The position numbers were made by a program, and so were the translations under genes. Below, piece by piece: positions 12,357 to 36,230 of a stretch of 56,508 nucleotides of DNA. The DNA is from Candidatus Krumholzibacteriota bacterium (GTDB lineage Bacteria; Krumholzibacteriota; Krumholzibacteriia; LZORAL124-64-63), in assembly GCA_024275485.1 (NCBI GenBank), contig JAJRZA010000014.1:1-56508 (forward strand), in the 5' to 3' direction. The notes beneath the pieces are model-generated. The model saw only the letters and a program-made list of their open reading frames with translations, did not search any database and was not told the DNA's origin. How positions within the stretch are numbered: position 1 is the stretch's first letter; each line of letters begins with the position of its first letter.

Positions 12357-12389
12357 ACAAAATAGCCCCACCCTAAGGGCGAGGCTATT
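12357..12389 (-). terminator. Terminator of the exb/tonB operon
   Basis: On the minus strand AATAGCCTCGCCC pairs with GGGTGGGGCTATT over 13 positions (two wobbles) around TTA, followed by TTTTG. It lies about 100 bases after the stop of the OmpA-like gene, the last gene of the operon. Confidence 0.7.
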
Positions 12390-12485
12390 GAAACCAAAGT
12401 TTCCCAAACGGTCCGCGTTCAAAACCGCCCAGGAAAGCTTTGGTAATTCTCCGCAAATTCACAAGGTGGATATTTGTTGTAGTAA

Positions 12486-13484
12486 TTAGTCCACATGCTC
12501 AATCACCACGGCCACCGAGCCATCCAACTCGGCACGAAGGTCAGGACTAAGAATTGTTTCGGTTGCCACCTGCTCCAAAGGCAGAATCATGCTTTCAGCC
12601 AAGTAGGCCGCGACTTCAGCGGCGCGCTTTTCCGCCAGAATATTGGTTTCAGCGGTCACAATCACTCGCACGGGAGAATATGGATGGCGGCGGATCTCAT
12701 CAGCACTATGAGTCAGCCAGCGCCTGCCTGTGTCCGTCAAATCGCTCTCTTCCCGGACAAATAGCTGGCCGCCGGCCATTTCCAGAATCCGATCACCATC
12801 ACGCTGATAATCCAGGGCCGGGATCCGGAAACTTACACCGGGGTGATTGTAGGTATTGGTCCCTTTGTCCGTTAGACTGAAGACATAACTGTAGGGATAT
12901 CCCACACGCAACATCTCACCATTGTCCCCCAGGCCATTCCAAACCAGAACTTCAGGTGCGTTATCTTTGCCCGCATAGGTCTTGAAGGGACTTCCACGGT
13001 AATCAATCACGGCCAAACTCCAGCTTTTTATTTCATGGCCTTCGGGATCAGTCGGATAAAACTGGGCCACCGGGGTGCGAGCCATCTCCGGAAGCCACAG
13101 ATGTGGAGGTTGATCGCTGATCAAAGTTTCCAGATTGTTCAAGTGGGGCTGCAATCCACTGACGGGACTCACTGTCAGGGCAATTTCATCCATGTCGGTG
13201 AAAAACGAGTCGATGATGGCGGCGTTCAACTCAAGGCCAAAAGTCCCTTTTTCTATTTTTTGCCTCACTTCGTTGGTGGCTTCGACCACCATTTCGGGCA
13301 AAGCAGCACCGGATTCACCATCGGATGTCCACTCTGCACCATCGTCGGCCGTCGATTGGCTCCAGGCGGGGACCACGGGCAAAACCGCCCCCACCATCAG
13401 TACCAAAGCCAGCTCTGGCAGAAAAGCTGCATGCAGAGGATGTTTTGTCTCCTGGATCATTCTTGAGATTGACACTGCTTTCAT
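12486..13484 (-). CDS. Exported OmpA-like C-terminal domain protein of the TonB cluster
   Basis: Protein of 332 residues with an N-terminal export signal (hydrophobic ELALVLMVGAVLPVVPAW, cleavage near AWSQS). The middle region (about 70-220) has no clear family. It contains VWNGLGDNGEMLRVGYPYSY, a turn reminiscent of FlgD-like Ig folds, where WDGxxxxG and Y follow. The last about 100 residues resemble a divergent OmpA/peptidoglycan-binding domain (LTDTGRRWLTHSADEI, then RVIVTAETNILAEKRAAEVAAYL). The start at 13484 has AAAGGAAA upstream, 20 bases after the tonB-like stop. Position and domains suggest a cell-envelope partner of the ExbB/ExbD/TonB machine, perhaps a peptidoglycan anchor. Confidence 0.65.
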   Translation of the reverse strand: MKAVSISRMIQETKHPLHAAFLPELALVLMVGAVLPVVPAWSQSTADDGAEWTSDGESGAALPEMVVEATNEVRQKIEKGTFGLELNAAIIDSFFTDMDEIALTVSPVSGLQPHLNNLETLISDQPPHLWLPEMARTPVAQFYPTDPEGHEIKSWSLAVIDYRGSPFKTYAGKDNAPEVLVWNGLGDNGEMLRVGYPYSYVFSLTDKGTNTYNHPGVSFRIPALDYQRDGDRILEMAGGQLFVREESDLTDTGRRWLTHSADEIRRHPYSPVRVIVTAETNILAEKRAAEVAAYLAESMILPLEQVATETILSPDLRAELDGSVAVVIEHVD

Positions 13485-13504
13485 GGCGTCGTTTCCTTTG
13501 CTGA

Positions 13505-14887
13505 TCACTTCAACTTGAATATGATGGTGATGATGCCCCACTGTTCCACGGCCGCCTGGTCGGTACCTAGAGGTGCAAAACGGAATTTTTTGATGGCAGC
13601 GCGGGCCGCCTGGTTCAGATCTCGATGCACCGAGGTTTGCTCGAAGTACATGTTGTCTTTCACACGGCCGTCCGCCAACACTGTAAAATGGACCGCAACC
13701 ACACCCTCCCAGCCTTTTTTCCGCGCCTGGTCGGTGTAGATTGCAGGTGAACTGTGCAGAATTTTTCTGCCCTGGATTTGTCCCGTGATGGACATGTTCA
13801 CGCCTTTGGCAGCTAATTTGGCTTCGGCCACGGCCTGACGGGGCTTCGAATCACTGTTGGGCTGGGAAACCACATCACCCACGGCAGGTTCGGCAATACG
13901 TTGACGACCGCTCAAGGCACCGCCTCGTCCGCCATTTCCATTGCCATAGTCCAGAAGGGTTTTGCGGCCACTTTTCTTGCTACCGCCACCACTGGGCCCC
14001 GCCACATCAACAACCCCAGCTGATCCGGTATGGCTGCCACTGCCATCAGATGGAGTCAATGCCGACTGGGGAGCCACATAGGCACTGCGACCAGCGGACT
14101 TCAGGGAACCACCAGAGGAAACACCAGCACCTGCTTCAGCAACGGCTGGCCCGCGCCGGGAGGTATTGCCGGCAGCTGCCAATACATCATCACCGGTAGC
14201 AACGGTTCCGGTCCGACTTTTCAGCCCGCCGGCCTGGGGCGTGAAGGCCTCTTTACCCCTGGGAGATGATGCGGCAGGAACACTGGCATCAGCAGTTTGC
14301 AGTGTCTTGACTGGCTGGCCCAGTTTGTTTGCATCAATCACCCGACGGGACTTGGGCCGCGGGGCTTTGGTATCGAGTTGAGCAGCCTGAGCCAATGCCT
14401 TTGGCTGGGAAGTCGGTTGAACAATGGGTGCCGCAACTTCAACCTGGGCGGCAACCGGTTTCTTCACCGGAGCAACCGGTTTAGGAACCTTCATTCGAGA
14501 CTTGACGGGGGCCTGTTGCAGACGAGGTTTCGCTTGGGGCGCAGTCACCGGGACGGGCGTTTCAACAGACTTGGCTGCCAGGCTCAAAGGCTCCGAACTC
14601 GCAGCGTCCTTCGGTTTGAAGGCATTGTCGGTGTTGACGCCACGTCCGGGAGGCTCCGGTTTGGGAACTGGAGCAGTTTTCTGGCGGAGCTTAACCTTGG
14701 CCGCCACGTCTTCACCGTAGGTTGCTTCGATGTAGGCAATTTCAGTCAGCTCCCCACCCGCGTCCATCATGGCCGCCTGGTGCCCCAACATCAGGCCGAG
14801 CATCAGCAACAGCCCGGCGTGAATGGCAAAGCTGATCGCCATGCCCCCTCCGGTGCTGCGCGATCGGTCGATGTGTCGCATGATCAT
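13505..14887 (-). CDS. TonB-family energy transducer
   Basis: Protein of 460 residues with one N-terminal membrane helix (MAISFAIHAGLLLMLGLMLG). A very long low-complexity periplasmic spacer follows, rich in Pro, Lys, Ala, Gly and Ser (about residues 65-360). The C-terminal TonB-like domain shows YTDQARKKGWEGVVAVHFTV, LADGRVKD and LNQAARAAIKKFRFAPLG. The family couples the ion-driven ExbB/ExbD motor to outer-membrane or surface processes. The spacer is far longer than in transport TonB proteins and the domain resembles AgmX/gliding-type TonB proteins. Its start overlaps the exbD stop by four bases (ATGA). No TonB-dependent receptor lies in the window, so the driven process is unknown. Confidence 0.85.
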   Translation of the reverse strand: MIMRHIDRSRSTGGGMAISFAIHAGLLLMLGLMLGHQAAMMDAGGELTEIAYIEATYGEDVAAKVKLRQKTAPVPKPEPPGRGVNTDNAFKPKDAASSEPLSLAAKSVETPVPVTAPQAKPRLQQAPVKSRMKVPKPVAPVKKPVAAQVEVAAPIVQPTSQPKALAQAAQLDTKAPRPKSRRVIDANKLGQPVKTLQTADASVPAASSPRGKEAFTPQAGGLKSRTGTVATGDDVLAAAGNTSRRGPAVAEAGAGVSSGGSLKSAGRSAYVAPQSALTPSDGSGSHTGSAGVVDVAGPSGGGSKKSGRKTLLDYGNGNGGRGGALSGRQRIAEPAVGDVVSQPNSDSKPRQAVAEAKLAAKGVNMSITGQIQGRKILHSSPAIYTDQARKKGWEGVVAVHFTVLADGRVKDNMYFEQTSVHRDLNQAARAAIKKFRFAPLGTDQAAVEQWGIITIIFKLK

Positions 14888-15300
14888 TTGCCAGCCTCCT
14901 GGTCCTTCTTTTCTTTGGTGGCCAGTGCAATGCTGGGGGCATCAGCCGCTTCCACCTGGGCAATCAAGGCTTCCACTTCTCCATAAGGCAAATTGCGATC
15001 AGCCTTGACCACCGCCACGCAATGGGGCGCGGCTTCAAACAGGCTAGCCAAATACTGACTCAAATCCTCCAGTTGCAAATGGTCTTCGCCCACAATGATC
15101 TCGCGATCCAGGGTGAAATGGATTTCAACATTGTCCGTGTCATCCACTTCCGCGGCCCGGGCCATGGGCAATTCCACGTCCACGTCTTCACTGGCCAGGA
15201 AAGGGGAAATCATCATCAGTGTCAGAACCACCACCAGGGAAACGTTGATGATGGGCACCACCGTTGTTCGGCTCTCGGATTGGAATGTGCTCTTCTTCAC
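14884..15300 (-). CDS. ExbD/TolR-family protein with Asn in place of the ion-carrying Asp
   Basis: Small motor subunit of 138 residues: short cytoplasmic N-terminus, one membrane helix, periplasmic ExbD fold (about 50-130). ExbD/TolR proteins normally carry an Asp in the helix that binds the proton. Here the helix begins VVPIINVSLVVVLTLMMISP. Aligned on its two prolines with the paralogue's helix, TPLADVTTTLIVVFLITMP, the Asp (D23 there) is Asn19. The codon AAC is unambiguous. The protein is otherwise intact and translated in an operon (one base after the previous stop, four-base overlap with tonB). It probably forms a mixed dimer with the Asp-bearing paralogue. Confidence 0.85.
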   Translation of the reverse strand: MKKSTFQSESRTTVVPIINVSLVVVLTLMMISPFLASEDVDVELPMARAAEVDDTDNVEIHFTLDREIIVGEDHLQLEDLSQYLASLFEAAPHCVAVVKADRNLPYGEVEALIAQVEAADAPSIALATKEKKDQEAGK

Positions 15301-15301
15301 G

Positions 15302-15730
15302 TTATCTCCCGATTTCGTTCAGCATGGCCAGGGATTCGGCACCGCTGCCTTTGGCAATGTCCAGAATTTCCACTACTTGTCCCAAAAGGACGTCGTCATG
15401 AGGAACTATGACTACCGTTTTATCGTCCCGTTTGGCCAACTCGCGGGTCAGCTGGTCTTCCAGTTGAATTGCATCGACCTGGGTCCCGTTCAACGTAATT
15501 CCAGCCGGTGTAACGGCCACGGTCAAGAGGCCTTCCTCTTTCAATTCCGTGGGAATAACCACCGCAGTCTCACTGCCGGCCTCCGCCTGGTTAACCTGAA
15601 TGCCGTTCCACATCATCGCCGGCATGGTGATCAGGAAAACCACAATCAGGGTCGTCGTGACATCCGCCAGTGGGGTGATGTTGGCCTCATTTTGGCCTTC
15701 CAGTATGCTGCCCTTGTTTTTCAATGCCAT
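15302..15730 (-). CDS. ExbD/TolR-family biopolymer transport protein
   Basis: Motor subunit of 142 residues with the standard plan: N-terminal cytoplasmic tail, membrane helix NITPLADVTTTLIVVFLITM with the conserved Asp at position 23, then a periplasmic domain (about 60-140, ending EILDIAKGSGAESLAMLNE). It should sit with ExbB in the inner membrane and carry the ion that drives the TonB-like protein. The start at 15730 follows GAGGAAAAAC. It is 18 bases after exbB and one base before the Asp-less paralogue, so the subunits are made together. Confidence 0.92.
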   Translation of the reverse strand: MALKNKGSILEGQNEANITPLADVTTTLIVVFLITMPAMMWNGIQVNQAEAGSETAVVIPTELKEEGLLTVAVTPAGITLNGTQVDAIQLEDQLTRELAKRDDKTVVIVPHDDVLLGQVVEILDIAKGSGAESLAMLNEIGR

Positions 15731-15748
15731 TGTTTTTCCTCAATCCGA

Positions 15749-16495
15749 TCAGCTCAGGACCGGAGCCAGTGGTTCTTTCTGATTTTTGTTCCGGGGTTCG
15801 CCAGCAGGCATTCCACTGGGCACCGTGCCGGCCACATTGGTGGTGGCTGCCACGCCGGTGCTCTGACGAGCCCGTTTGTTGTACTGATGCCAGATGGTGA
15901 AGTAGGCTTCGCGTGCGTCTTCGAGCTGGGCCGTCCGGGTGCGGATCTGGCGCACGAAGAAGTTGAAACTGATGGTGGCGATGACAGCGACAACAATACC
16001 GGCAGCAGTTGTCATCAGGGCTTCGGAAACACCCATGGCCACCACGGCCCCACCACCTGAACCGGTGCGCGCGATGGCGGCAAAGGCCCGGATGATACCA
16101 ATCACGGTACCAAACAAACCCAGCAGCGGAGCGATGTTGCTCATGGTGCCCAACACGCCCAGATTGCGTTCCATTTCCACTGTCTCCAGATCAATGGCCG
16201 TATCAAGGCGTTGCTGCAATTCGTCACGGGACCGTCCCATGTGCATGATTCCCTGGGCCATCACCCGGGCCACGGGACTGTTGCTCTGCGAACAAAAATC
16301 CAGGGCGGTTCGGGGATTACCGGTCTTCATGCGGTTGCCCAGTTCATTCATGAACCGGCGGGTATCACTGCGCGAGCTGTGAAAGTAGTGAATGCGCTCA
16401 ACTGCAAAACCAACCGTGATGATGGAGCAAATCGCCAGCACCATCATGGTGGGAGATGCGATCAGAAACTCAATAATGGACATTTCGCCGAACAT
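15749..16495 (-). CDS. ExbB/TolQ/MotA-type proton channel protein
   Basis: Inner-membrane motor subunit of 248 residues. There are three membrane segments: about 8-28 (IASPTMMVLAICSIITVGFA), about 115-140 (IAPLLGLFGTVIGIIRAF, the family hallmark) and about 155-180 (VSEALMTTAAGIVVAVIATI, with the paired threonines lining the ion path). The cytoplasmic loop carries LETVEMERNLGVLGTMSN. The last about 45 residues are a Pro/Ala/Thr-rich tail longer than usual. It is the first gene of the exbB-exbD-exbD-tonB-ompA-like operon and probably sets its transcription, with a 202-base region upstream. Confidence 0.93.
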   Translation of the reverse strand: MFGEMSIIEFLIASPTMMVLAICSIITVGFAVERIHYFHSSRSDTRRFMNELGNRMKTGNPRTALDFCSQSNSPVARVMAQGIMHMGRSRDELQQRLDTAIDLETVEMERNLGVLGTMSNIAPLLGLFGTVIGIIRAFAAIARTGSGGGAVVAMGVSEALMTTAAGIVVAVIATISFNFFVRQIRTRTAQLEDAREAYFTIWHQYNKRARQSTGVAATTNVAGTVPSGMPAGEPRNKNQKEPLAPVLS

Positions 16496-20910: not shown

Positions 20911-20951
20911 TTAATAAAAAAAGCCCGCCTCCGTTTTCGGAGACGGGCCTT
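20911..20951 (-). terminator. Terminator of the secretion operon
   Basis: AAGCCCGCCTCCG pairs with CGGAGACGGGCCTT (one mismatch, one bulge) around TTTT. On the minus strand a T run (TTTTTTTATT) follows. It lies 34 bases after the TPR-protein stop and ends the minus-strand operon from 32124. Confidence 0.85.
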
Positions 20952-20984: not shown

Positions 20985-23900
20985 TCACCCTCCAACTACC
21001 CCGGAGGCCCTGATGGCGTCGATACGCTCCATTGCCATGGCCGACCACTCGGGCTTTCCACCAGCATCTTGGATTTGCTGCCAGGCTGCCAGTGCTGCCC
21101 CCCAGTCCCCCCGCTCTTCGGCAATTTCCGCCATCCGGGCCAAACTGGCGATGCGGAAGGGATCCACCAGGTCACCCTGATCCGCTGCTACGCCATAACT
21201 GACCAGGGCCTGGTCGATGTTGCCGTCTTTTTCATGGCACTCACCCTGACGATAGCGCGCTTCGGCCACCGGGGCGTCACCACTTTCCAGAGCGTGTTCA
21301 TAAGCCTCGACTGCCTGGCGATAGTCGCCCAGCTCTTCCTGATAGAGCGTGGCGATCTGCACCCACAGACCCTTGGCATTGTCGTCTGTAGGATAATCGG
21401 AAAGGAAGCGCACATATCCACCAATGGCGGCGTGCCAATCTTCAATTTCCTGGTAGCAGATGGCTGCATTGTAGGAAGCCAAAGCCGCGTACTGTCCCTC
21501 GGGGAAAACATCAGTCAGGGTTTCATAACTGAGAGCGGACTCGAGATACTTTTCCTGTTTGAACTGCACGGTGGCAGCCCGCAACTGGGCCAGCTCGGCA
21601 AGATCATGGGAAGGATGAGTGGTGGTAAAGTTGTGGTAACCGGCCAGGGCCTGGTCCATGTTGTCGGCACGGTAATAACTTTCGGCCAGATAGAAAAGGG
21701 CGCCGGGACCGGATTCACTGTCGGGGTAGTCCAAGGTAACCTTTTCGAAAGCCCTGGCCGCGACGGCATAGTCCTGCTCGGCGAAGGCGTCCTGTCCCTT
21801 GTTCCAGTAGATGTCGGCAGCCAATGGGCTGTCGGGGTTGCCTTCGAGGTACTCTTCCATGTCGCGACCGCTGCGATAGTAACAGCTCTGAATACCCAAT
21901 TCGGCGTCTTCAATTCGCGGATCATCGGGATTGGCCTCTATAAAGGCGGCGAAGGTCTCGATGGCCAGATCATCCTGGCCCTGATTGTAGGCGCAGTTGG
22001 CCAATCCGAATCCAGCGTCGGCAGCGTGCTTCCCCGTGGGGAATTGCCTTTGCAGACGGTTGTAGGTGGTCGAGGCGGCAGCGAACTGTCCCAAACCAAA
22101 CTGGGTATCGCCAATGCGGTAGAGAGCTTCCTCTGCTTCGGGATCCGCAGGGAATCGGGCCAGCAAACTCTTCCAGCTTTCGATAGCCTGGTCGTAGTAC
22201 TGTAGACGATAGTAACAATCGCCCTGATTGGACAGTGCCGAAGGCGCATTCGCGCCATCCGGGTGCTTGGCCAGGAATTCACTGAACTGCTTGAGGGCTT
22301 CTTCGTATTTGTGTTGGTTGAAATAGATACTGCCCACGGCCAAACTGTTGGTACCCTTTTCGCTTTCTGCGTTGGCCAGGGCCAACAGGTATTTTTCCTG
22401 CTCTTCGAGAGCCAGTTCGTATTGCCCGGTCTGGCTACGACTGGCCACCAATCCCTGCAACGATGCCGCGGCCACATTGCTGCGCGGATAGCCGGTCAGA
22501 ACCAGACGGTACATGCCTGTGGCGCGTCGATACAAACCCTGCTGATAGTAGGCCTCCCCCAGATAGTAATAGGTGCGGGCCCGCCACTGGCTGGGCGTAG
22601 GAAGCAACCTGCTGGCCAGGTAGTTGTAGTTGGTCAACAACCGATCCAGTTCTCCGGTTTTGAAATAGGCCATGGTCGACAGGAACAACGCCCTTTCGGC
22701 CACATCGGAGTTCACATGCTTGTCCACCACGTTCTGGAATGATCGGATGGCTGCAGGGTATTCTTCCAGGGAAAAATGGCTGTAGCCCTGCAAAACCCGC
22801 ACCCGGGGAGCGAGATCGTCGCCGGGAAAGCGGTCCAGGAATTCATCGGAAAGGACAATGGCCTGTCCATAGTTTTCTTCCGTGGCGTAGGCGTAAATCA
22901 CCTTGTGCAACGCAGAACTGGCAACCTTCGATTCGGCAAAACCGCGCACCACATCGGTCCAGGCGAAAATCGCCTCGGCGGTGCGGTCCAGCTGCATATA
23001 GCAATCGCCAATGAGATATTGGGCGTAGGCACTGATCATTTCGCCGGGAAAGAGGCGAACGATTTCTTCCAGTTGGCGCACCGATTCGTCGAAGCGGCCT
23101 TCAATGAAAGTCACACAGGCCATCTTGTAGCGGGCGTTGGGAACGAACTGGCTTTTGGGATATTTTTCGATGAAGACGCGATAACTTCGCACCGCCACCG
23201 TGTTCTGACCTGAACGGTAAAAGGCTTCGGCTATGGAAAAAGCCACATCGTCGGCCAGTGGACTGTCGGGGTACTGACGCAACACCTGACGATACCGTTG
23301 AATGGCCAAAATGTACTGGCCCGTATCCTCGAGACAACGACCCAGATAGTACAATCCCCGATCGCTGGGCACTTCGGCAAAAAAGGCGATGGCTTCGTCA
23401 TAGCGCTTTTCTTCGTAGGCAAACAAGCCGAGGGCAAACTTGACCTGGGGTTTTTCGGCATAGCCGGGCCGGCGCTCCAGCAACTCGCGGTAAGCCGTGC
23501 GCAGCTTCAGCCAATTTCCTTCGACGATATAACTGAGACCGATTTCATAAAGACCTTCGGCCAACAGGAAGGTGTCGTCGTACTTGTTGATGAGTCGATC
23601 GTACTGGGTGATGGCTTCGCTGAATTGCCCAAGGTTGAAATAGCACTCACCCTGGCGCAATAGAACACTTGCCTTGAGATAATCGTCTTCGCCTTTGTAG
23701 TTGTCCACCTTGTCGTATTCCCGCAAGGCTCCTTCATAGTCTCCGGCGGCGAAGTAGCACTCTGCCAACATGTACTGTGCACCTGATGAACGGGGACTCT
23801 TGCCGTAGGACTGCACATACAAACGGTACTGCTGCATGGCTGCGCTTTTATCCACCCCGTCAGCGAAAGCCTGACCGGCCGCTTCCCACAGCGAGGCTTC

Positions 23901-24053
23901 GGTGGGTACTTTCCGTTCGCTGGAACTGTCAGCAGCCAAGGCCTGACCAACTCCGGCGACCAGCATCCACAGCACTGCCGAAGTACAGATTGCCATGGTT
24001 ATGGTAGTCCGGCGGGACACCATCGGTTTGTTCATTGCTAGTGTCCTGTTCAT
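20985..24053 (-). CDS. Large exported tetratricopeptide-repeat protein
   Basis: Protein of 1022 residues with an N-terminal signal sequence (MAICTSAVLWMLVAGVGQALAA). It is almost entirely TPR-like repeats of about 35 residues, at least 20 by eye (for example RQGECYFNLGQFSEAITQYD, NQGDCYYRLQYYDQAIESW, QGECHEKDGNIDQALVSYG). Such proteins act as periplasmic or outer-membrane-associated scaffolds, like the TPR parts of YbgF/CpoB and BamD. The start codon overlaps the PorV-like stop by one base (TAATG), implying translational coupling. Its job is probably to assist assembly or export of the two upstream products, though it could equally be a general envelope scaffold. Confidence 0.85.
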   Translation of the reverse strand: MNRTLAMNKPMVSRRTTITMAICTSAVLWMLVAGVGQALAADSSSERKVPTEASLWEAAGQAFADGVDKSAAMQQYRLYVQSYGKSPRSSGAQYMLAECYFAAGDYEGALREYDKVDNYKGEDDYLKASVLLRQGECYFNLGQFSEAITQYDRLINKYDDTFLLAEGLYEIGLSYIVEGNWLKLRTAYRELLERRPGYAEKPQVKFALGLFAYEEKRYDEAIAFFAEVPSDRGLYYLGRCLEDTGQYILAIQRYRQVLRQYPDSPLADDVAFSIAEAFYRSGQNTVAVRSYRVFIEKYPKSQFVPNARYKMACVTFIEGRFDESVRQLEEIVRLFPGEMISAYAQYLIGDCYMQLDRTAEAIFAWTDVVRGFAESKVASSALHKVIYAYATEENYGQAIVLSDEFLDRFPGDDLAPRVRVLQGYSHFSLEEYPAAIRSFQNVVDKHVNSDVAERALFLSTMAYFKTGELDRLLTNYNYLASRLLPTPSQWRARTYYYLGEAYYQQGLYRRATGMYRLVLTGYPRSNVAAASLQGLVASRSQTGQYELALEEQEKYLLALANAESEKGTNSLAVGSIYFNQHKYEEALKQFSEFLAKHPDGANAPSALSNQGDCYYRLQYYDQAIESWKSLLARFPADPEAEEALYRIGDTQFGLGQFAAASTTYNRLQRQFPTGKHAADAGFGLANCAYNQGQDDLAIETFAAFIEANPDDPRIEDAELGIQSCYYRSGRDMEEYLEGNPDSPLAADIYWNKGQDAFAEQDYAVAARAFEKVTLDYPDSESGPGALFYLAESYYRADNMDQALAGYHNFTTTHPSHDLAELAQLRAATVQFKQEKYLESALSYETLTDVFPEGQYAALASYNAAICYQEIEDWHAAIGGYVRFLSDYPTDDNAKGLWVQIATLYQEELGDYRQAVEAYEHALESGDAPVAEARYRQGECHEKDGNIDQALVSYGVAADQGDLVDPFRIASLARMAEIAEERGDWGAALAAWQQIQDAGGKPEWSAMAMERIDAIRASGVVGG

Positions 24054-25351
24054 TATTTGGTCCCCCCGGTGAGGTTTTCACTGCCGCTGATTTCAACCCT
24101 GATGGGAGTACGGGTGCGATCCTTGAAGCCCATCACCTCGACCATCGATTGGAAGTCCCATTCCTGTCCCATTGAGTCGACGATGGTGACACGGGCATCG
24201 TACTGCCCATCATCCACCAGGCGACCGTTTTCATCCTGGCCTCCCCAACTGACGCCATCGGGAGGCGTTCCGTTGCCGCTCATGGTTTTGACGGACCTGC
24301 CGTCTTCATCGGTGATCTCCACTCGCCAAGATTCCACCTGACCGCGCACCGCCGTCTCAATGGCAAAACGCACATCGTGATCTTCACCCGAAGGGCTGAA
24401 AATGGCACGGCTGCTGTTCATCTTCACACCAAAAGGCACTCCGAAGCGCAAGGTGGCGCTCAGAACATTCTGGGCTCCGAGATCGGTGCTGACGTAGGCG
24501 TAATCGAACTGCCAGTTTTCAAGACGGAAACCGGCGCCCGCGCTCATGTGTTCGCGTTCGCCATCGTAGCCGCCGCGCAAACTCAGGAAGCGCACCGGCC
24601 ATATTTCGAGACCACTGCGAAAACTGGTATCCATGAATTCGGTTTTCACCAGATCGCTGGTCACCATCATTCGGCCGCGAAAAAACCGTAAGGCAAAACC
24701 GGCGCGCATGCTGCGGGCCAACTTTTCTTCTTCTTCAACCAGGGTGATGGCAGGTTCAACAAGGTTTTGCACCGAAGCACCCAGGCTCAGCAGGCGATGG
24801 GGGCGATAATACAGGCCCAGGTCCATGCCCATGCTGCTGCCCGAAGCCCCGCCAATATCCTGGCTGACGGATTTCAAGTTCACACCGTAAGACAGCCTTC
24901 CAAATCCATTGGCGTAACCCAGGGAGAAGATGCCTTCCTTCTCGCTGAAGGTTTCACCGAGGTCTTCATCCCAGGTTGAGCGTTCAAACTCGCCACTGGT
25001 GGTGAAGGTGCCGTTCAAGGAGAAGGTACCCCAGTTTTCCGTGGGCATCCCCAGGGCGAAGAAGGTGTACTTCGTATCATTGAACATGGTGGCGCCCATG
25101 CCGGTGATCTCCATGGTGCGCAACTGAGCCAGACCCGCCGGGTTCCAGTACGATGTGGCTACGTCGTCACTCAAACCCACCACTGCGTTGCCCAAAGCCA
25201 AACTGCGGGCACTGGCACCGAAGCGAAGGAAGCCTCCGGGCACACCGGCATCGTCCACAGCCAGGGCCGCAGAAGTTGCCAGGGTCAATGTTGCCATGAT
25301 CAGAAAGAGCCTGATCATCAAACTGTTGGTTTTCATGGTTACAGCTTTCAT
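24053..25351 (-). CDS. PorV/UPF0164-like outer-membrane barrel with C-terminal FlgD-like domain
   Basis: Outer-membrane protein of 432 residues with a signal peptide (LFLIMATLTLATSAALA). The first mature segment, FLRFGASARSLALGNAVVGL, then SDDVATSYWNPAGLA, is the signature of the PorV/PorQ/UPF0164 family. Alternating beta-strand residues run to about residue 310. The last about 110 residues look like an Ig-type FlgD module: FAIETAVRGQVESWRVEI, then DGVSWGGQDENGRLVDDG and Y. In T9SS bacteria PorV carries cargo bearing a C-terminal signal domain. Here the neighbouring giant protein ends in such a domain. The gene overlaps the stop of the giant gene by one base (TGATG). Confidence 0.8.
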   Translation of the reverse strand: MKAVTMKTNSLMIRLFLIMATLTLATSAALAVDDAGVPGGFLRFGASARSLALGNAVVGLSDDVATSYWNPAGLAQLRTMEITGMGATMFNDTKYTFFALGMPTENWGTFSLNGTFTTSGEFERSTWDEDLGETFSEKEGIFSLGYANGFGRLSYGVNLKSVSQDIGGASGSSMGMDLGLYYRPHRLLSLGASVQNLVEPAITLVEEEEKLARSMRAGFALRFFRGRMMVTSDLVKTEFMDTSFRSGLEIWPVRFLSLRGGYDGEREHMSAGAGFRLENWQFDYAYVSTDLGAQNVLSATLRFGVPFGVKMNSSRAIFSPSGEDHDVRFAIETAVRGQVESWRVEITDEDGRSVKTMSGNGTPPDGVSWGGQDENGRLVDDGQYDARVTIVDSMGQEWDFQSMVEVMGFKDRTRTPIRVEISGSENLTGGTK

Positions 25352-28300
25352 CACTTCACCACCGCAATCTTGCGACGGAGGTCCATTCCGTTGCCGTATA
25401 CTCGGCAGATATACCCGCCATTGGCCACCACCCGGCCTTTGCCGTTGCGACCGTCCCAGGTGAACTGCTCCACTGACCCGGCAACCACGTTGCGCTGCTC
25501 GCTGTACACCATGCCGCCGTACAAATCGTACATGGTGACGGTGACGATGCCGCTGTTCGTGGGCCGGAACATGATCGTGGTCTCTCCTTCATTGGGATTG
25601 AAGGGGTTGGGTCGGTTGGTGATCTCCTTGTCCATGGCCAGGTCGCGGGCAGTGTACAGGGTCACTGTCTGGACCTCTTCGAGCACGCCGCTGCTCTCTT
25701 CGGCGTAGAATCGCAGGAAGTGTTCGCCCGGTTCCGCAAACTCCGGTCCCAGGTCCTGCAGGGTGAAAGTACCGTCGTACACGGTGACTGGTCGCGGGGG
25801 ATCCATCAAATCCACGTCCACGAAAATTGTCTGGATGCCACGCACGTCCTCCGTCACCGCGTTCAGGTGGATTTCCGTACTCGGGGTGATGTAGAATCCG
25901 TCGCGAAAAGGCGTCACCACCGGATCAAAGTCGACATGGGTCACCGGGGGTCCCGTCACTTCCAGCAGAATCGCTTCGCTCACCAGTTCACCGGCAACGA
26001 TTTGAATCATGACGTCTTCAGTGCCATAATCGCTGATCCCAAGCTCCACATCGGCGCGGCCATCCACGTCGGCGCTCAGGAAATAGGTGTTGGCCCTCGC
26101 GTTGCCCAAAGTGCCGTCGCCCTGGATCACCTGCAGGTTCATCCCCGTCCCGGAGACCGGGTTGCCGGACGCATCGGTGGCCCGGGCCTGAATATCGACC
26201 ACTTCGCCGGGACGCAGGGGGCGATCCAGCTCGTGCCCCGGCAGATCTTCGGCCCAGAGATCTATGATCGCAGCCGGAGCCGGAATCACCGTTACCACAT
26301 CACTGAAGAAACTTTCACCCGTGGCATCGCTGATGCGCAGATAAATGCTCTCGGCCCTGTCGTAGGTCTGGAAAGCAAAGGCCCGCTCACCGGACTGGGT
26401 GGTGCCAACGGTATCGGCCAGAATGCCGGCCGGGTCGTAATTGAAATCCGGACGGGGCGAGTTGCCGCTGAAGGCGTTGATCACAAAATTGCGATCATCG
26501 CTGGTGACCAGCTGCCCAGTGACGATGTCCACCCGACGCACGGTCATTTCGAATCCTTCTCCAGCCACAACGGTGTCCGGAATATCAACCGCATATCGCA
26601 CGCCTTCGGGAACCACGGTCAGAACGTCGCTGAAGAACTCGCGGCCACGGGCATCTCGGATGCGAATCACGATTTGCTCACTGGTGGCGTAGTGCTGGCC
26701 GCTGACCACGGCTTCACCACCCACCAGGGTCGCGCTGGCGATGCCCAGGGTATCGTGGGCGCCGGTGCGGCCGGGCAACAGGGCGGTCATTTCAAATTCG
26801 CCGCCGGCGTCAATTCGATCGCCTGTTTCAGGATTGACCAGGCGCACCGTCAGACTGAAGGTGGCCGGAGGTCCTGCAGTCACGGTGGCCGGTTCCGGCA
26901 GCACCACGCGGTATTCGGCCTCATTGACCGGAATATCCACACGGCCGCTGTTGACCTCGGGGTGACCGGGATCAGTGGCAAACACGGAGACCATGCCCGG
27001 GTTTCCCAGGATGATTTCCAGATCACGGCTGCCATTGACAAATGGGACGAAATCGTCGGCGGGATCCACCAAATCCAACTGGCCGCCACTGCTGCTCAGA
27101 TGGATGGTACCATCCACGATGGAGGTGACCAGATTCCAGTACTGATCCACCGCGCGCACCGAAATGGTGAATGGCGATTCAGCCTGCTGGGTCAGCGGTT
27201 CGCCCTCCTTGCCATCGCCACTGAGTGCGCCGGGAACCGGGCTCTCCCCGGGAGCCACTATCTGGATGCGTTTGAAACCGTCGGCCAGCATGCGGCAGGT
27301 GTTGCTGATACCGGTGATGCCGGTGGTATCGGACACCTGGACGAAGATATCCTCGGAACGGCTGTAGGCCTGGGCGATGGTGCGAATACCACCGCTGAGA
27401 ATACCCTGAACAACTTCCGTGGCACCGCTGCCGGGCAGACCGGTCTGGGCACTCACGATTTGAATGTTGAAGAGACGATCCTGTGTTGTGACCCGTTGAC
27501 CGGTATTGCTGTCCAACAGTTCCACGATCAGGGGGAAGGTTTCAGGCGGGCCAACCACGGCCGAATCAGGCATGCTGACCGAGAAGTACAATCCGCCACT
27601 GTCCATTTCAATGACCGAGCTGAAAGCTTCGCGACCAAAGTCGTCGGTAACTCGAATGATGATGTCTTCCACGGTGCTGTAGTTTTGATCGTTGATCACC
27701 GTCACACCACCAATGAGTTGGGCTTCCACCGTGCCGAGATCACCGTTGGCAGCGCCATGGTTGGGCAACAACGGTGTCAGGTCGAATCGGTTCATGGCCG
27801 TGGGCACCACATTGCCGGTGATCGGATCAATCAGTTTGATGGTGATCAGGAAACCGGGCACTGGACCAGTGGATGCGGTGGCCGGCACGCTGATTTCATA
27901 TTCGTAGGGAGGGTCCACCGGGATATGGCTGGACTGTGATGGTTTGCTCAGATCGTCCTCATCGTAGATGGTGACCGAAACGGTTCCGGCGTCCGTCAGG
28001 AATCCGTTGAAACTGCGCCTGCCATTGACGAATGGAACGTAGTTTTCCTGGGGATTGCCAGAGTTGGCAAAGGAATTGTCACTGGCCACCAGACGCAGGC
28101 TGCCCACGTTGGTGGTATCGGCGAGATTCCAGTACTGGTCCACCGCGCGCACGGTCATGGGGAACAATTCACCCGACCGCTGGGTCAGGGGCGCTCCACT
28201 TTTCCCACTGACGTCAAAGGCCGGAATTCCCGGTTCAACGATTTCACCGGGAGCAAGGATCTGTAATCGTTTGTAACCATCGGCATGAATGGCGAACACG

Positions 28301-31300
28301 GGACTTGAACCGATCAAGCCAGTGCTGTCGGTGACGGTGACGTAAATGTTCTCCGCACGGGTATAGCTCTCCTGGAAATGGATCACTCCATGGTCCAGAC
28401 GCTGGCTGGTGGTGCCAACGGTGCCGAGTCCAACGCCACCGAGAGCGGTCATGACCGCCACATCCAAACGACGATCCTGGTCGATGATGGTGTGAGTGTC
28501 CACGTCTCGCAGAACCACATCCAAAGGGAAGGTTGCCGGTGGTCCAACCAGGGCCGTGAGGTCCTGATCAAGAGTCACGACATACTCCAAGCCATTGGAC
28601 AACATATTGATAGTGGAGCTGTAACTGCTGCGTCCGGCGGAATCGGTGATCCACAGGACGATATCTTCCACCGTATCGTAGGCTTGACCACTGATGGTCA
28701 CAATACCGTTGGCCAGCTGACTGCTGGTGATTTGCAGGTTGCTGCTGGCCGGCTCAAGGTTGCTGCGCAGGGCCTGGATGTTGAACCAGTTGTTTGCTGC
28801 AGGCATGGGAATGCCAAACTCATCGACCAGGCTGACGGTCACTTCAAAAGTCTGCGGGGGTCCCACGTAGGCCGAGTTCGGCACCACTATTTGGTAGTTG
28901 GCACCCTGCTGCACCTGTACGGTGGTCGCCTGCCCCAAAATGTCCAGGTTGTCCATGGCCGAGGCCGTCAGGGTGATGAAACCGGAGCTGGTCAGGAAGA
29001 CCGGCAGCGTCAGCTCACCGGAGACCAAAGACTGACCGTTGTTCAAGGGGTTGGTCGGGCTTATGGAGCCATCGTCGCTGGCCAACCAGACGTGTTCACT
29101 GCTGTTGTTGACCTGATTCCAGAACTGGTCAGCGGCGCGAATCCTGGCGTTGAACTCCAGGCTGGCCGTTTGCGGAATGGGTGACCCGCTTTTACCATCG
29201 GTTTCCGGGCTCCCGGGCTCGGCAACTTCGCCGGGTAGCAACAGCATCAGTCGGTTGAATTCATTCGGCCCAACCAAAACCCGGCTGGTGTCGGTGTACG
29301 CAGGCATTATCAGATCGCTGACAACCAGATTGTGGGTGGTTGCAGTCTTGAAGAACAAATCGAACTGGGCAGTACCCGAGGGGTCCAACTCTGCATCGTT
29401 GGCCGAAATCATCTGGAAGAAATTATCGCTGGCAAAATGGGCCCGGGGCTGCACTGGAACCTGGTTCCAGTAAGCATCGGTGGCGATGACCGTAGCGATG
29501 ATGGGATCACCGGCGACCGTTGGCAAAGCCGAACCGGCTTTACCTGGAGCGATACCCGGAGTATGGGTTTCGCCAGGCAGCAGGATGACCATATCGGCAT
29601 AATCCTGGGCCGTAGCGAAGACGTTGAAGGTGTTGGAACTATCCGTGTGGGCGTAGGTGTCTTCACGCACGTAGAGGCGATAGTCCATTTCCGCCTGGGT
29701 GATCTGGATATTTCCCCGCCAGGCGCCTTGGTAGTTCCCACTGCCGAGACCGAGACTCATGTCGGCCACCGTTGGAGTGAGAATACCAGTTCCGTGGTTC
29801 ACATAGAGAGTCACGTTTTCAGTGAAGTCGGCCACATGGTTGCCAAAGACATCTCGCGCAATAAGGGTGACGTTGGGCAGCAGTGAACCGGCCCGGTGGT
29901 CGGGTAACGGATCCAGCCCATCGGCCGGAGTGGGGTTGGTCCGGCTGTTGATGCCGATGTCGAAGTGATCGATCACTCCGGCTTTCATGGGCACGGTGGT
30001 AAGAGCAAACACGCCACTGCCGTTGTGGTCCACGCGCACCGTCTGGTGATTGGGATCGGCAAGGGTGATCAAGGTAATTTGAAAATCACCGTTGTTGTCG
30101 TTGATGGCCTGGGGGTTGCTCGGCAGAGCGGCTGCTGCATCGGTGCTGGAAAAATCCATGGAAAGGGGCAGCACCGCGTCCACGTCGCTAACCGGGTTCC
30201 AGTAGGAGTCAGTTGCAAATACCCGAACGTCGAAAGGCACACCAGCATCCTGAATGGCTGAATCGCCAATTTTGCCGTCGTCTTGAATGGAATCAAAAAT
30301 CCCCGGATCCAGAGTCTCGCCCGGTGCCTGGACAACCATGCGCGCAAAGGCTGCCGGAGAAACTATAACCGGACTGGAGTCGTTAGCATTGATACCACTG
30401 CTTTCAGCCCGCAGATGCTGAAGTTGATCGGCCGAACGCAGGATTACCTGAAGATCGGTGGGGTTGTTGATGGTCACCACATTGCCCGGGTAGTTGGGAA
30501 GTTCAAAATAGCCGGACGGGCAACTGATGGTCACATTGCGGGTACCGGGCGCCAGGTTGTTGTAACGATCAACCGGGCGAATGGTCATGGGATTGATGAC
30601 CTGGCCGGCGATGACCGGGTTGGCAGTACCCTGGTTGCCGCTGAAGTTTTCATCATTGAGACCGTTGACCCAGGTTTCGCCTGGGAACGACATCAGAATT
30701 TTTTCGCAAGGCCCGGCATTCACCTGGAAAGCCGTCGATTCTCCCACGACACCACTGTCCACAATGAGATACGCACTGAACCCGCGCTTGGTGACCTGGA
30801 TCTGGGCATCCAGCTGACCATTCACGAAAGTGGAATTGTTGGTCAGGATATAGTCGGCACTTTCATCGGAGGCACCGATGCGCACACGCAGACTCACCCC
30901 ACCATTGAGGGGGAAAAGGTTGTCGTTTGAATCGCGGGCATAAATGCGAATGTTGAAAGGAATGGTCGTGACCTGGGAATCATTGGGATTCCACACCCCG
31001 GCATCAAACTCAAAGTGGTCCAAACCCTGGGGATTGATCACTACATCGCTGCGGCTGGTGCCATTGACAGCGCCGCTGGCAGTGGCGGTGATCCGGGTGG
31101 TGCCCGAACGAATCAGGGTCGCACTCAAGCTGGATTCAGGGTTGCCACCCATCAATCCGCCGACGGGCAAAACCACGCCACCATTGGGATCGTCACTGGT
31201 AAACCCAAGGGTAGGCAGGGCCGCCGGTTCAATGGGGTTCCAATGCTGATCAGTGGCATAAACACTGATGCCACCAAAATTCTGGCCACTGGTTTGGTTG

Positions 31301-32124
31301 TTGGGCAAACCACTTTTACCAGGAGAGACACCCGGTGTGAGGCTTTCCCCGGGCAACAGCAGAACGATGCCATCGAGGGGACCAGGACGCAGGGGCGTGA
31401 TGGTGGCCACACCGGTGGCCGCACCGGATTGCCCCGGATACACCACAGAGTTCGTTACAGTCAGTTCGTTTTCACGGGTCACCGGATCGGTTCCCCAAAA
31501 AGTCACAGCCGAGATGATTTGACCGTCGATAAAGCCGACACCATTGACCGTAATGGTCGCTCCGGTCGGGAAATGGCCAACCAGGGCATCAAGAACGACA
31601 TCATCACGGAAATTGAGAACCGCCACTCCTTCATTGTCACGAGCGGTCAGGGTGATATTGACTGGTTGATTCACAAATTTGTCGCCACCAGGCACGGTCA
31701 AGTCAAAGTGATGGACAAAGTTGTAGCAATTGATATCCACATCCGAAGTGGGCACGGACCCGTCATCAGCATCCCCCACCCGTAAACGAACGGGTTGACC
31801 AGCGGCCAGGAAACGAATCCCGTCGAATTGGTATTCACCATTGACGAGGTAGACAGCACTGGGCAAAACAGCAGCAACATCCGGAGAACTCAATTGGGCA
31901 TGAATGAAGTTGGCATTCACATCAGTGCTACCATCACTGTTCACCGCGCGCACATTCACGCTGAAATCGGTCTCCACGGTGACGGACGGATTCCCGGCCA
32001 CCACGTAAGGGTTGACCACGGTGATTTCCAGATGGTCAAAAGCGAAGGAACCGGAGGCGAAGCCCATGATCAAAATAAGGCCCACAACCAGAATCCACGC
32101 GTGTTTTTGATTTTTTCCATTCAT
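25351..32124 (-). CDS. Giant secreted Ig-like repeat protein with C-terminal FlgD-like sorting-type domain
   Basis: Predicted surface or secreted protein of 2257 residues. Start 32124 gives a signal peptide (WILVVGLILIMGFASGSFAF); the longer frame from 32229 has an unlikely leader. The chain is built of beta-rich Ig-like modules. One module type opens with PGExxxPG, a GKxG turn and a DxYWN motif, with seven copies between about 31365 and 27205. A second type opens with GPPxTFxxxVxL, with about six copies between 28890 and 26500. The C-terminus (about the last 95 residues) is a FlgD-like domain: NRPNPFNPNEGETTIMF, then VTMYDLYGG, FTWDGRNGKG and NGGYICRVY. Likely an adhesin or appendage subunit. 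Antisense frames of up to 739 codons here are shadows. Confidence 0.88.
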   Translation of the reverse strand: MNGKNQKHAWILVVGLILIMGFASGSFAFDHLEITVVNPYVVAGNPSVTVETDFSVNVRAVNSDGSTDVNANFIHAQLSSPDVAAVLPSAVYLVNGEYQFDGIRFLAAGQPVRLRVGDADDGSVPTSDVDINCYNFVHHFDLTVPGGDKFVNQPVNITLTARDNEGVAVLNFRDDVVLDALVGHFPTGATITVNGVGFIDGQIISAVTFWGTDPVTRENELTVTNSVVYPGQSGAATGVATITPLRPGPLDGIVLLLPGESLTPGVSPGKSGLPNNQTSGQNFGGISVYATDQHWNPIEPAALPTLGFTSDDPNGGVVLPVGGLMGGNPESSLSATLIRSGTTRITATASGAVNGTSRSDVVINPQGLDHFEFDAGVWNPNDSQVTTIPFNIRIYARDSNDNLFPLNGGVSLRVRIGASDESADYILTNNSTFVNGQLDAQIQVTKRGFSAYLIVDSGVVGESTAFQVNAGPCEKILMSFPGETWVNGLNDENFSGNQGTANPVIAGQVINPMTIRPVDRYNNLAPGTRNVTISCPSGYFELPNYPGNVVTINNPTDLQVILRSADQLQHLRAESSGINANDSSPVIVSPAAFARMVVQAPGETLDPGIFDSIQDDGKIGDSAIQDAGVPFDVRVFATDSYWNPVSDVDAVLPLSMDFSSTDAAAALPSNPQAINDNNGDFQITLITLADPNHQTVRVDHNGSGVFALTTVPMKAGVIDHFDIGINSRTNPTPADGLDPLPDHRAGSLLPNVTLIARDVFGNHVADFTENVTLYVNHGTGILTPTVADMSLGLGSGNYQGAWRGNIQITQAEMDYRLYVREDTYAHTDSSNTFNVFATAQDYADMVILLPGETHTPGIAPGKAGSALPTVAGDPIIATVIATDAYWNQVPVQPRAHFASDNFFQMISANDAELDPSGTAQFDLFFKTATTHNLVVSDLIMPAYTDTSRVLVGPNEFNRLMLLLPGEVAEPGSPETDGKSGSPIPQTASLEFNARIRAADQFWNQVNNSSEHVWLASDDGSISPTNPLNNGQSLVSGELTLPVFLTSSGFITLTASAMDNLDILGQATTVQVQQGANYQIVVPNSAYVGPPQTFEVTVSLVDEFGIPMPAANNWFNIQALRSNLEPASSNLQITSSQLANGIVTISGQAYDTVEDIVLWITDSAGRSSYSSTINMLSNGLEYVVTLDQDLTALVGPPATFPLDVVLRDVDTHTIIDQDRRLDVAVMTALGGVGLGTVGTTSQRLDHGVIHFQESYTRAENIYVTVTDSTGLIGSSPVFAIHADGYKRLQILAPGEIVEPGIPAFDVSGKSGAPLTQRSGELFPMTVRAVDQYWNLADTTNVGSLRLVASDNSFANSGNPQENYVPFVNGRRSFNGFLTDAGTVSVTIYDEDDLSKPSQSSHIPVDPPYEYEISVPATASTGPVPGFLITIKLIDPITGNVVPTAMNRFDLTPLLPNHGAANGDLGTVEAQLIGGVTVINDQNYSTVEDIIIRVTDDFGREAFSSVIEMDSGGLYFSVSMPDSAVVGPPETFPLIVELLDSNTGQRVTTQDRLFNIQIVSAQTGLPGSGATEVVQGILSGGIRTIAQAYSRSEDIFVQVSDTTGITGISNTCRMLADGFKRIQIVAPGESPVPGALSGDGKEGEPLTQQAESPFTISVRAVDQYWNLVTSIVDGTIHLSSSGGQLDLVDPADDFVPFVNGSRDLEIILGNPGMVSVFATDPGHPEVNSGRVDIPVNEAEYRVVLPEPATVTAGPPATFSLTVRLVNPETGDRIDAGGEFEMTALLPGRTGAHDTLGIASATLVGGEAVVSGQHYATSEQIVIRIRDARGREFFSDVLTVVPEGVRYAVDIPDTVVAGEGFEMTVRRVDIVTGQLVTSDDRNFVINAFSGNSPRPDFNYDPAGILADTVGTTQSGERAFAFQTYDRAESIYLRISDATGESFFSDVVTVIPAPAAIIDLWAEDLPGHELDRPLRPGEVVDIQARATDASGNPVSGTGMNLQVIQGDGTLGNARANTYFLSADVDGRADVELGISDYGTEDVMIQIVAGELVSEAILLEVTGPPVTHVDFDPVVTPFRDGFYITPSTEIHLNAVTEDVRGIQTIFVDVDLMDPPRPVTVYDGTFTLQDLGPEFAEPGEHFLRFYAEESSGVLEEVQTVTLYTARDLAMDKEITNRPNPFNPNEGETTIMFRPTNSGIVTVTMYDLYGGMVYSEQRNVVAGSVEQFTWDGRNGKGRVVANGGYICRVYGNGMDLRRKIAVVK

Positions 32125-32454: not shown

Positions 32455-33831
32455 TCACCACTGCTCTACCCCGGCCACATGAACCCGCTTGGCCAATTCC
32501 AAACGCTGTTGTGACAGGATATATTCGCGGATGTAATGCAGACCCGGTCGATTGCTGTCATCACCCTCAAGGAACTCCAGGCCGAATTCATCCTGTTGGT
32601 TGTCCCCATCAGCCAAACTAATGCTGGCCCAACGAATGATACCCTTGATTCGTTGCAATGACGGCGCACCGGGGAACGACAAGCAACACATGACCTGGCT
32701 GTTGGCCTTTACCCAACCGGTCATCTTGTCCGGCTCGGCAATGATTCTGGCACCGGAAAAACTGAGATCAGCCAACCGTCCTCTTACCGTGTCACCCCTG
32801 ATTTCACCAGCCACTGAGGGGTTCTCATCATTCGCCACTGGGCTTTCATCAATTGTCACCAAGCTTTCCTCGATAGCCTGGGGTGGATTGTCGTCCAGGT
32901 GGTCAAGGTATTCGATTTCCACCCGAATGTGTTCCAGGGAATTGATGCGAAAGGCAAGACGCCGCTGCTCCACATTCAAAACACTCGGAAGCGACAATTC
33001 CACACAATTGATGGCTGCTGAACCCGCAATGGGATATTTCCCCTTACCAAGGTATCTTGAGATGAATGAGAGGGCCCGATTCTGAACTCCCACCTTGATT
33101 CGAACTTCATCACCCTGTTTGAGGGCTTTCACTTCCGGACCGGAAAAGTCCATGACGAGCCGAAACGCCCGGCTCCCGTCCACCTTGGTTGTTTCGAGCA
33201 TCATCCCGGTGTGGATAATGAAGGTTTCATCTTCTGCAGAAACTTCCACCTGCACATCCAACTCCGTCTTGCGCAGGAAAATCAGGAAATCGTCAATATT
33301 ACCCATGGAGACGATTTTCTGGACACCGGCCCAGCCCTTGGGCAAATGGGAAGCGACCATGTCGCTGAAATACCCTGGGCCCCGAACCTCTTGCAACTCC
33401 GAACGGGAAGGGATTTCAGCCATCAAATAAAAATGTCCAATTTCAGTTTCCAGACAAATTCCGTAACTGCGCACTCCACTACAGGGCAAATTGAGTGTTT
33501 CCGCAACATTGCTTTCGATCCAGCCCCGGGGGTACCGCCCCTTCATCCCTTTCAAGACACTGTCAAGGAATCGGTTAGTTAGAATTTCCGATCCTGAGTC
33601 TGAACCTGATTTGTCGAAATTTTCCGCCAAATGGTCAGATAGCTGGGCATCGCAGCCGAGATGAATCCGTTGCAGGGTTCCCCCACTGAATGCGACCTCC
33701 CCAAAAGAGGGAAATTCCAGGTTCCCTTGACCTATCTGGGTGATATCTTCATTAATGACAGGTATTCCACAGGTTGCGCCAAGGGCATCCTTGCCTGCCT
33801 TTATCAGCAATTTAAGGGTGTTGGTCAGCAT
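32455..33831 (-). CDS. PilZ-domain protein, probable c-di-GMP receptor
   Basis: Cytoplasmic protein of 458 residues. The C-terminal PilZ domain (about 295-440) has both binding motifs: RxxxR within QRRLAFRI and D/NxSxxG as DLSFSG (about residue 375). A YcgR-like N domain precedes it (about 190-290; KQGDEVRIKVGVQNRAL). The first about 170 residues recall a CheX/CheC-type domain (EVAFSGGTLQRIHLGC, LSDHLAENF, later GHFYLMAEIPSR), which would link it to chemotaxis or motility; this part is tentative. The start has AGGAAG five bases upstream. It lies upstream of the giant surface protein on the same strand. DSF signalling often works through c-di-GMP, so a link to the RpfF/RpfC pair is possible but not shown. 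Confidence 0.78.
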   Translation of the reverse strand: MLTNTLKLLIKAGKDALGATCGIPVINEDITQIGQGNLEFPSFGEVAFSGGTLQRIHLGCDAQLSDHLAENFDKSGSDSGSEILTNRFLDSVLKGMKGRYPRGWIESNVAETLNLPCSGVRSYGICLETEIGHFYLMAEIPSRSELQEVRGPGYFSDMVASHLPKGWAGVQKIVSMGNIDDFLIFLRKTELDVQVEVSAEDETFIIHTGMMLETTKVDGSRAFRLVMDFSGPEVKALKQGDEVRIKVGVQNRALSFISRYLGKGKYPIAGSAAINCVELSLPSVLNVEQRRLAFRINSLEHIRVEIEYLDHLDDNPPQAIEESLVTIDESPVANDENPSVAGEIRGDTVRGRLADLSFSGARIIAEPDKMTGWVKANSQVMCCLSFPGAPSLQRIKGIIRWASISLADGDNQQDEFGLEFLEGDDSNRPGLHYIREYILSQQRLELAKRVHVAGVEQW

Positions 33832-36201: not shown

Positions 36202-36230
36202 AGCGCCTCCATCGTCCGGGGCGTTTGTTA
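36202..36230 (+). terminator. Possible terminator after glgX
   Basis: AGCGCC pairs with GGCGTT (one wobble) around a 12-base loop, followed by TGTTAAT. It lies in the 110-base gap between the convergent glgX and tamB-like genes. The T run is weak, so this is a moderate call. Confidence 0.4.

What the first reader, a model, noticed from the sequence alone, without database searches (positions are those of the whole stretch)
20985..32124. Operon pairing a giant FlgD-domain cargo with a PorV-like carrier and a TPR scaffold
The three genes overlap by one base at each junction (TGATG, TAATG), so they are made together. The first product ends in a FlgD-like domain similar in layout to sorting domains of type 9 secretion cargo. 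The second belongs to the PorV/UPF0164 group, which in T9SS bacteria receives cargo signals, and itself carries a C-terminal FlgD-like module. This may be a self-contained export and anchoring unit in a lineage without typical T9SS genes.
Basis: partly seen in the sequence, partly recalled or inferred. Interest (0 to 1): 0.6.

Follow-up and report, generated by a model that had tools for sequence, protein, structure and literature searches.

The report
Surface-protein carrier coupled to Ton motor
In a poorly known bacterial phylum, a giant surface protein, the outer-membrane carrier that probably holds it and a periplasmic scaffold are inherited together with a proton-powered Ton-type motor, which suggests a force-driven surface machine that uses, and does not replace, the type 9 secretion system.

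Summary
In detail: three minus-strand genes (32124-20985) overlap by one base at each junction and encode a 2257-aa Ig-type protein with a T9SS-type FlgD tail, a PorV/PorQ-family barrel with an extra FlgD-like module, and a TPR protein. The lineage (Krumholzibacteriota) does have a T9SS: SprA in 19/19 relatives, PorU, a canonical PorV and about 127 FlgD-type domains in this genome. The unit is therefore not self-contained. It is also larger: the triad (37 of 40 loci; the other 3 sit at contig ends) is followed by ExbB, ExbD, ExbD, TonB and a FlgD+OmpA-like protein wherever sequence continues. Two paralogous versions occupy 57 of 80 genomes of the phylum. The barrel's FlgD module is not a sorting tail and should lie in the periplasm. 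Most likely the barrel is a dedicated carrier and anchor for the giant, coupled to a proton-driven motor; it works like SprB-SprF or Agl-Glt but was not shown to belong to either. A role as essential T9SS energiser is disfavoured because SprA-positive genomes lack it. Motor coupling and function are inferred.

The parts
25351..32124 (-). Gene A: giant secreted Ig-type protein (2257 aa), signal peptide, PGE...WN repeats, C-terminal FlgD_ig / T9SS type-A-like tail (NRPNPFNP...WDGRNGKG...GGYICRV...RRKIAVVK)
   Evidence: PNP motif in 37/37 orthologues
24053..25351 (-). Gene B: PorV/PorQ-family 14-stranded outer-membrane barrel (model residues 81-302) with periplasmic FlgD-like module (309-406)
20985..24053 (-). 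Gene C: exported TPR protein, 1022 aa, signal peptide, no lipobox seen
20920..20951 (-). Intrinsic-terminator-like hairpin (14 pairs, T tract) ending the three-gene unit in this genome
   Evidence: strongest of 18 found (12.8 expected by chance), judged on its 14-pair stem
15749..16495 (-). ExbB/TolQ-type proton channel
   Evidence: PF01618 107 bits; follows TPR directly in most relatives
15302..15730 (-). ExbD/TolR no. 1, keeps the membrane Asp (TPLADV)
   Evidence: Asp in 17/17 type I loci
14884..15300 (-). ExbD/TolR no. 2, Asp replaced by Asn (PIINV) in the type I version
   Evidence: Asn in 16/17 type I loci; the one other row is an over-extended ORF, probably an artefact
13505..14887 (-). 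TonB-type force transducer (TonB_C 49.5 bits, N-terminal membrane helix with His)
12486..13484 (-). Exported protein with FlgD-like module and C-terminal OmpA-like domain (peptidoglycan-binding loop degenerate)
   Evidence: follows TonB in 22/22 loci fetched downstream

Best explanation
This is the outer part of an eight-gene trans-envelope machine. The giant is made with a signal peptide and exported through the cell's ordinary SprA (T9SS) translocon. Its C-terminal tail is taken up by the co-produced PorV-family barrel, a dedicated carrier that keeps it on the surface. The barrel's FlgD-like module hangs in the periplasm and, with the TPR protein and the FlgD-OmpA protein, links the barrel to TonB, which is driven by an ExbB-ExbD-ExbD proton motor. 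The motor then pulls on, moves or re-arranges the surface protein (adhesion or surface motility most likely). Shown by sequence: gene order, families, barrel and module layout, co-inheritance, presence of SprA/PorU, intact motor residues. Inferred: carrier-cargo binding, periplasmic contacts, force transmission, biological role.
For: Triad order in 37/40 loci. ExbB-ExbD-ExbD-TonB follows wherever sequence continues; FlgD-OmpA follows in 22/22. Across 80 genomes barrel and FlgD-OmpA co-occur (51 both, 1 and 5 single, 23 neither; Fisher 3e-14; the five FlgD-OmpA-only cases run off contigs). Barrel model: 14 strands, pLDDT 79; best PDB match is PorV from the substrate-bound T9SS complex 8gl6 (TM 0.61 by target), ahead of FadL. 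Giant tails match the genome's cargo tails; the modules of the barrel and of the OmpA protein do not, but these two are related to each other. SprA, PorU and canonical PorV present. Motor channel motif and ExbD1 Asp conserved. Precedent: SprF carries and anchors SprB and couples through its periplasmic C-tail to the motor-driven track (PMC12635249); PorE-PorP-PG1035 (PMC9143113).
Against: In this genome the motor genes lie 4.5 kb away behind a terminator and three inserted genes. No interaction was modelled. Type A cargo elsewhere uses one general PorV and is released or sortase-attached, not held by a private carrier (PMC12618676, PMC12635249). TonB-dependent receptors exist in the genome, so this TonB could serve them. 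The OmpA-like domain lacks the usual Asp loop. The barrel's C-tail has no conserved cysteines, so the SprF disulfide link cannot apply.
Confidence: 0.5

Rival explanations
1. Static anchor: the barrel is a dedicated carrier for the giant and TPR/FlgD-OmpA tie it to the cell wall, as in PorE-PorP-PG1035; the Ton genes are neighbours that serve TonB-dependent receptors.
For: Carrier-cargo pairing is general in this genome, mostly without motor genes; TonB-dependent receptors are present; in genus g1 the two halves are split by three genes and a terminator.
Against: Motor genes are contiguous with the triad in nearly all other genera and both halves are gained or lost together. FlgD-OmpA, whose module resembles the barrel's, sits on the far side of the motor genes.
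Confidence: 0.25
2. The cluster is the energy chain of the T9SS itself, replacing the GldL/GldM motor, with TonB pushing carrier-cargo complexes out of SprA.
For: GldL, GldM and GldN not detected in 19 genomes that all have SprA; a second ExbB-ExbD-ExbD-TonB set lies beside another PorV paralogue at C95.
Against: Well-assembled SprA-positive genomes lack the cluster (G011, G013, each 95% complete); none of the four genomes of genus g7 has it. The Gld searches had no positive control, so absence is not proved.
Confidence: 0.08
3. Nutrient uptake: the FadL-fold barrel imports a compound caught by the giant, energised by TonB.
For: FadL proteins are the next structural matches; a Fibrobacter OmpA-TPR-ExbB-ExbD-ExbD-TonB set rises on cellulose and was proposed for uptake (PMC6851124).
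Against: PorV matches better than FadL; no TonB-receptor plug was reported in gene B; the giant has an export tail.
Confidence: 0.1
4. A Tol-Pal-like envelope-constriction system with PorV and giant in place of TolB.
For: ExbB/ExbD score best with TolQ/TolR models; a TPR and an OmpA-like protein are present.
Against: A separate canonical locus with motor genes, TolB, Pal and CpoB-like TPR is at C50; the cluster is missing from 23 of 80 genomes.
Confidence: 0.04

Closest known systems
SprF-SprB carrier/adhesin pair of Flavobacterium gliding (PMC12618676, PMC12635249)
   Same: giant T9SS-exported surface protein next to its own FadL-fold carrier; carrier has a periplasmic C-terminal coupling part; proton motor behind
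   Different: here the carrier is PorV-type, the tail is type-A/FlgD-like, the C-terminal part is an Ig-like module without conserved cysteines, and the linked motor is ExbB/ExbD/TonB instead of GldL/GldM
PorE-PorP-PG1035 anchoring complex (PMC9143113)
   Same: surface cargo, outer-membrane barrel, TPR and OmpA-like wall-binding parts
   Different: type B cargo; TPR and OmpA parts are on one protein there and two here; no motor genes linked
Agl-Glt core complex (AglRQS, GltC/D/E/G) of Myxococcus and others, one copy in Fibrobacter (PMC3169522)
   Same: one TolQ-like and two TolR-like proteins, a TonB-like transducer and TPR proteins; an operon in many bacteria; used for gliding and sporulation in Myxococcus
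   Different: no PorV, giant or FlgD parts there; TonB here has no FHA domain; TPR protein does not reach the GltE cut-off
Fibrobacter succinogenes FSU_2396-2403 (PMC6851124)
   Same: OmpA, TPR, TPR, ExbB, ExbD, ExbD, TonB in one numbered neighbourhood, raised on cellulose; organism thought to use T9SS
   Different: no PorV or giant is reported in that stretch; sequence homology could not be tested here

Membership tests
PorV/PorQ family | NCBIfam NF033709 score over curated cut-off | tested here: met
   134.2 vs 90 bits
PorV/PorQ family | 14-stranded FadL-type barrel like PorV | tested here: met
   14 strands in model; PorV 8gl6/6h3i top Foldseek hits; profile hit to 6h3i_F E 3e-13
PorV (T9SS equivalog) | NF033710 over cut-off 250 | tested here: not met
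   57 bits; a better-scoring family member lies beside PorU at C28
PorV/PorQ family | extracellular loops bind cargo tail | not testable with these tools
   no complex prediction available
T9SS type A cargo | FlgD-like tail with PNP motif at the very C-terminus | tested here: met
   37/37 giants; FlgD_ig 27.8 vs 27
T9SS type A cargo | TIGR04183 over cut-off 23 | tested here: not met
   18.0 bits
T9SS (genome) | SprA and PorU present | tested here: met
   SprA 19/19 genomes; PorU 456 vs 420 bits
T9SS (genome) | GldL/GldM motor and GldN present | tested here: inconclusive
   0/19 each but no positive control rang
Agl-Glt core complex | TolQ-like plus two TolR-like plus TonB-like transducer | tested here: met
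Agl-Glt core complex | GltG FHA domain; GltE over cut-off 225 | tested here: not met
   no FHA hit; GltE 24.9 bits
Tol-Pal | TolB and Pal in the cluster | tested here: not met
   canonical set at C50 instead
SprF/PorP carriers | PorP/SprF model TIGR03519 over 90.55; twin cysteines in C-tail | tested here: not met
   19.4 bits; no cysteine in the window protein, none conserved

The most novel reading that the evidence does not exclude
A surface-motility or force-generating adhesion machine that joins a T9SS-exported giant protein and its private PorV-type carrier to an asymmetric ExbB-ExbD-ExbD/TonB motor (one ExbD without the membrane Asp), independent of GldL/M/N, in an uncultured phylum.
Probability: 0.3. 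Interest if true: 0.85.

Novelty: new variant of a known kind. Interest (0 to 1): 0.6.

Why it matters
In Bacteroidota, type A cargo is described as using one general PorV and only type B cargo as having private carriers (PMC12618676). Here type-A-like cargo is paired with many PorV paralogues, and one such pair is inherited with a Ton-type motor. If true, it widens what T9SS carriers do, shows a surface protein driven by a Ton/Tol-class motor, and gives a concrete system for asking how SprA-bearing bacteria outside Bacteroidota energise their surface machinery.

Tried and rejected
Lineage lacking T9SS: rejected. FlgD module of the barrel as a second sorting signal: rejected. A second PorV after TonB, suggested by an iterated HMM, proved to be a FlgD+OmpA-like protein; the hit came from the shared module. 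Cluster as Tol-Pal: rejected. Cluster as essential T9SS motor: disfavoured by SprA-positive genomes without it. Sequence-profile search of the FlgD-OmpA protein against PDB gave only a designed protein; the OmpA call rests on structure and a sub-threshold Pfam hit. GldL/M/N absence could not be proved. The UPF0164/FlgD literature search returned nothing useful. First tail-HMM attempts used wrong-strand tails or crashed and were redone. The eight loci are the same contigs as some genome-search loci and were not counted twice.
Full report
What is there. The window is contig C101 of a 3.98 Mb, 96% complete genome. Its nearest public relatives for gene B are Candidatus Krumholzibacteriia/Krumholzibacteriota MAGs. 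On the minus strand, gene A (32124-25351), gene B (25351-24053) and gene C (24053-20985) overlap by one base at each junction and end at a strong terminator-like hairpin at 20951-20920. All three begin with signal-peptide-like sequences (read directly).

Gene A. 2257 aa, mostly Ig-like, with seven copies of a PGE...WN-type repeat (count by motif). The last 90 residues pass FlgD_ig. A tail HMM built from 27 FlgD-tailed proteins of the same genome scores a median of 53 bits (39-62) on 37 giants, and all 37 carry the PNP motif. Between this genome and G001 the giant is the most conserved of the eleven neighbouring proteins compared (86% identity against 47-85%). That is unusual for a surface adhesin and suggests a structural role.

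Gene B. It passes the PorV/PorQ family model, not the PorV equivalog. AlphaFold2 (29 sequences, pLDDT 79) gives 14 barrel strands (81-302) and then an Ig-like module (309-406). The best PDB matches are PorV in the substrate-bound T9SS complex 8gl6 and in 6h3i, then FadL; a profile search agrees and also finds FlgD for the module. With an even strand number and both ends periplasmic, as in known FadL/PorV proteins (established knowledge), the module faces the periplasm. It lacks the PNP motif (0/32) and scores low with the tail HMM (median 25 bits), so it is not a sorting tail.

T9SS context. SprA is present in 19/19 genomes including this one. PorU is over its cut-off at C28, directly followed by a canonical PorV-family gene. 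About 127 FlgD_ig hits occur genome-wide; of 30 inspected, 27 lie within 25 aa of a C-terminus. Eight PorV-family genes are found, and roughly six have a tail-bearing gene immediately upstream (one only marginally, 12.8 bits; one is PorU itself). Expected by chance for five or more of eight: about 3e-6, using 127 tails in an assumed 3500 genes. GldL, GldM and GldN gave nothing in 19 genomes, without a positive control.

The larger unit. In relatives the TPR gene is followed by ExbB, ExbD, ExbD and TonB, and TonB by a protein with a FlgD-like module related to that of the barrel and an OmpA-like C-terminal domain (22/22; best structure matches are OmpA/MotB/Pal domains). The usual Asp-bearing loop of that domain is shortened, so wall binding is uncertain (reading against the known OmpA motif). 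In the window the five genes are at 16495-12486, split from the triad by an enoyl-CoA hydratase, a histidine kinase on the other strand and an Fe-S protein; G001 and G003 of the same genus share this split. Two paralogous versions exist: type I (giant about 2250-2300 aa) and type II (giant about 1000 aa); several genomes carry both. Barrel hits with E < 1e-35 reaching the FlgD module occur in 52 of 80 genomes, FlgD-OmpA hits with E < 1e-50 in 56, both in 51. The five FlgD-OmpA-only genomes have contigs that end inside or beside the TPR, motor or TonB genes. So 57 of 80 genomes have the cluster and 23 lack both markers, among them well-assembled SprA-positive ones. ExbD1 keeps the membrane Asp (17/17 type I, 10/10 type II); ExbD2 has Asn in 16/17 type I but Asp in 9/10 type II.

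Mechanism. The parts list runs from cell surface to inner membrane: surface protein, outer-membrane barrel, periplasmic module, TPR scaffold, wall-type domain, transducer, proton motor. The closest working analogies are SprF-SprB, where the carrier is linked by its periplasmic tail to the motor-driven track (PMC12635249); PorE-PorP-PG1035, where a TPR/OmpA protein backs a barrel holding its cargo (PMC9143113); and the Agl-Glt core, where one TolQ-like and two TolR-like proteins drive a TonB-like protein with TPR partners (PMC3169522). I therefore favour a dedicated carrier-anchor for the giant with Ton-type force coupling (0.5). Carrier pairing is the firmer half (about 0.8); coupling to the motor is moderate (about 0.55); adhesion or motility as the end use is a guess (about 0.35).

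Novelty. Each part is known; the combination (type-A-like giant, private PorV-family carrier fused to a periplasmic FlgD module, ExbB-ExbD-ExbD-TonB, FlgD-OmpA) was not found in the papers searched. Occurrence outside the phylum was not tested. Hence a new variant of a known kind.

Noticed in passing
L141 (G000:C60:46000-62000), 6253-16001 minus strand: A third motor-linked set in this genome: TPR, 1364-aa protein with type B/CHU_C tail (TIGR04131 32 bits, CHU_C 51 bits), 654-aa barrel-like protein with FlgD module, ExbB, ExbD-like, a 366-aa transducer-like protein, then a 904-aa lipoprotein.
   Followed up: partly
L069 (G000:C95:66236-86235), 3843-15665: TonB-receptor-like protein, FlgD-tailed protein, PorV paralogue, GWxTD-like protein (weak hit), ExbB, ExbD, ExbD, TonB in one run: another PorV gene beside a Ton motor.
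   Followed up: partly
L073 (G000:C26:6300-20914), 2984-11925: 2293-aa DUF11 protein with FlgD-type tail followed by a PorV-family barrel in a 727-aa ORF with a long extra C-terminal part.
   Followed up: partly
window 32455-33831 (-) and L078, L080, L086, L087, L089: A PilZ-domain (c-di-GMP-binding type) gene lies directly upstream of the giant in the window and five other type I loci, suggesting c-di-GMP-linked control.
   Followed up: partly
window 14884-15300 and type I loci: The second ExbD has Asn in place of the membrane Asp in type I clusters only; type II keeps Asp in both.
   Followed up: partly
L140 (G000:C50:1-16000), 4586-9123 minus strand: Canonical Tol-Pal locus (motor genes, TolB, Pal, CpoB-like TPR) separate from this cluster.
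   Followed up: yes
window 36228-41545 (-): Adjacent TamB-like and BamA/TamA-like outer-membrane assembly genes.
   Followed up: no
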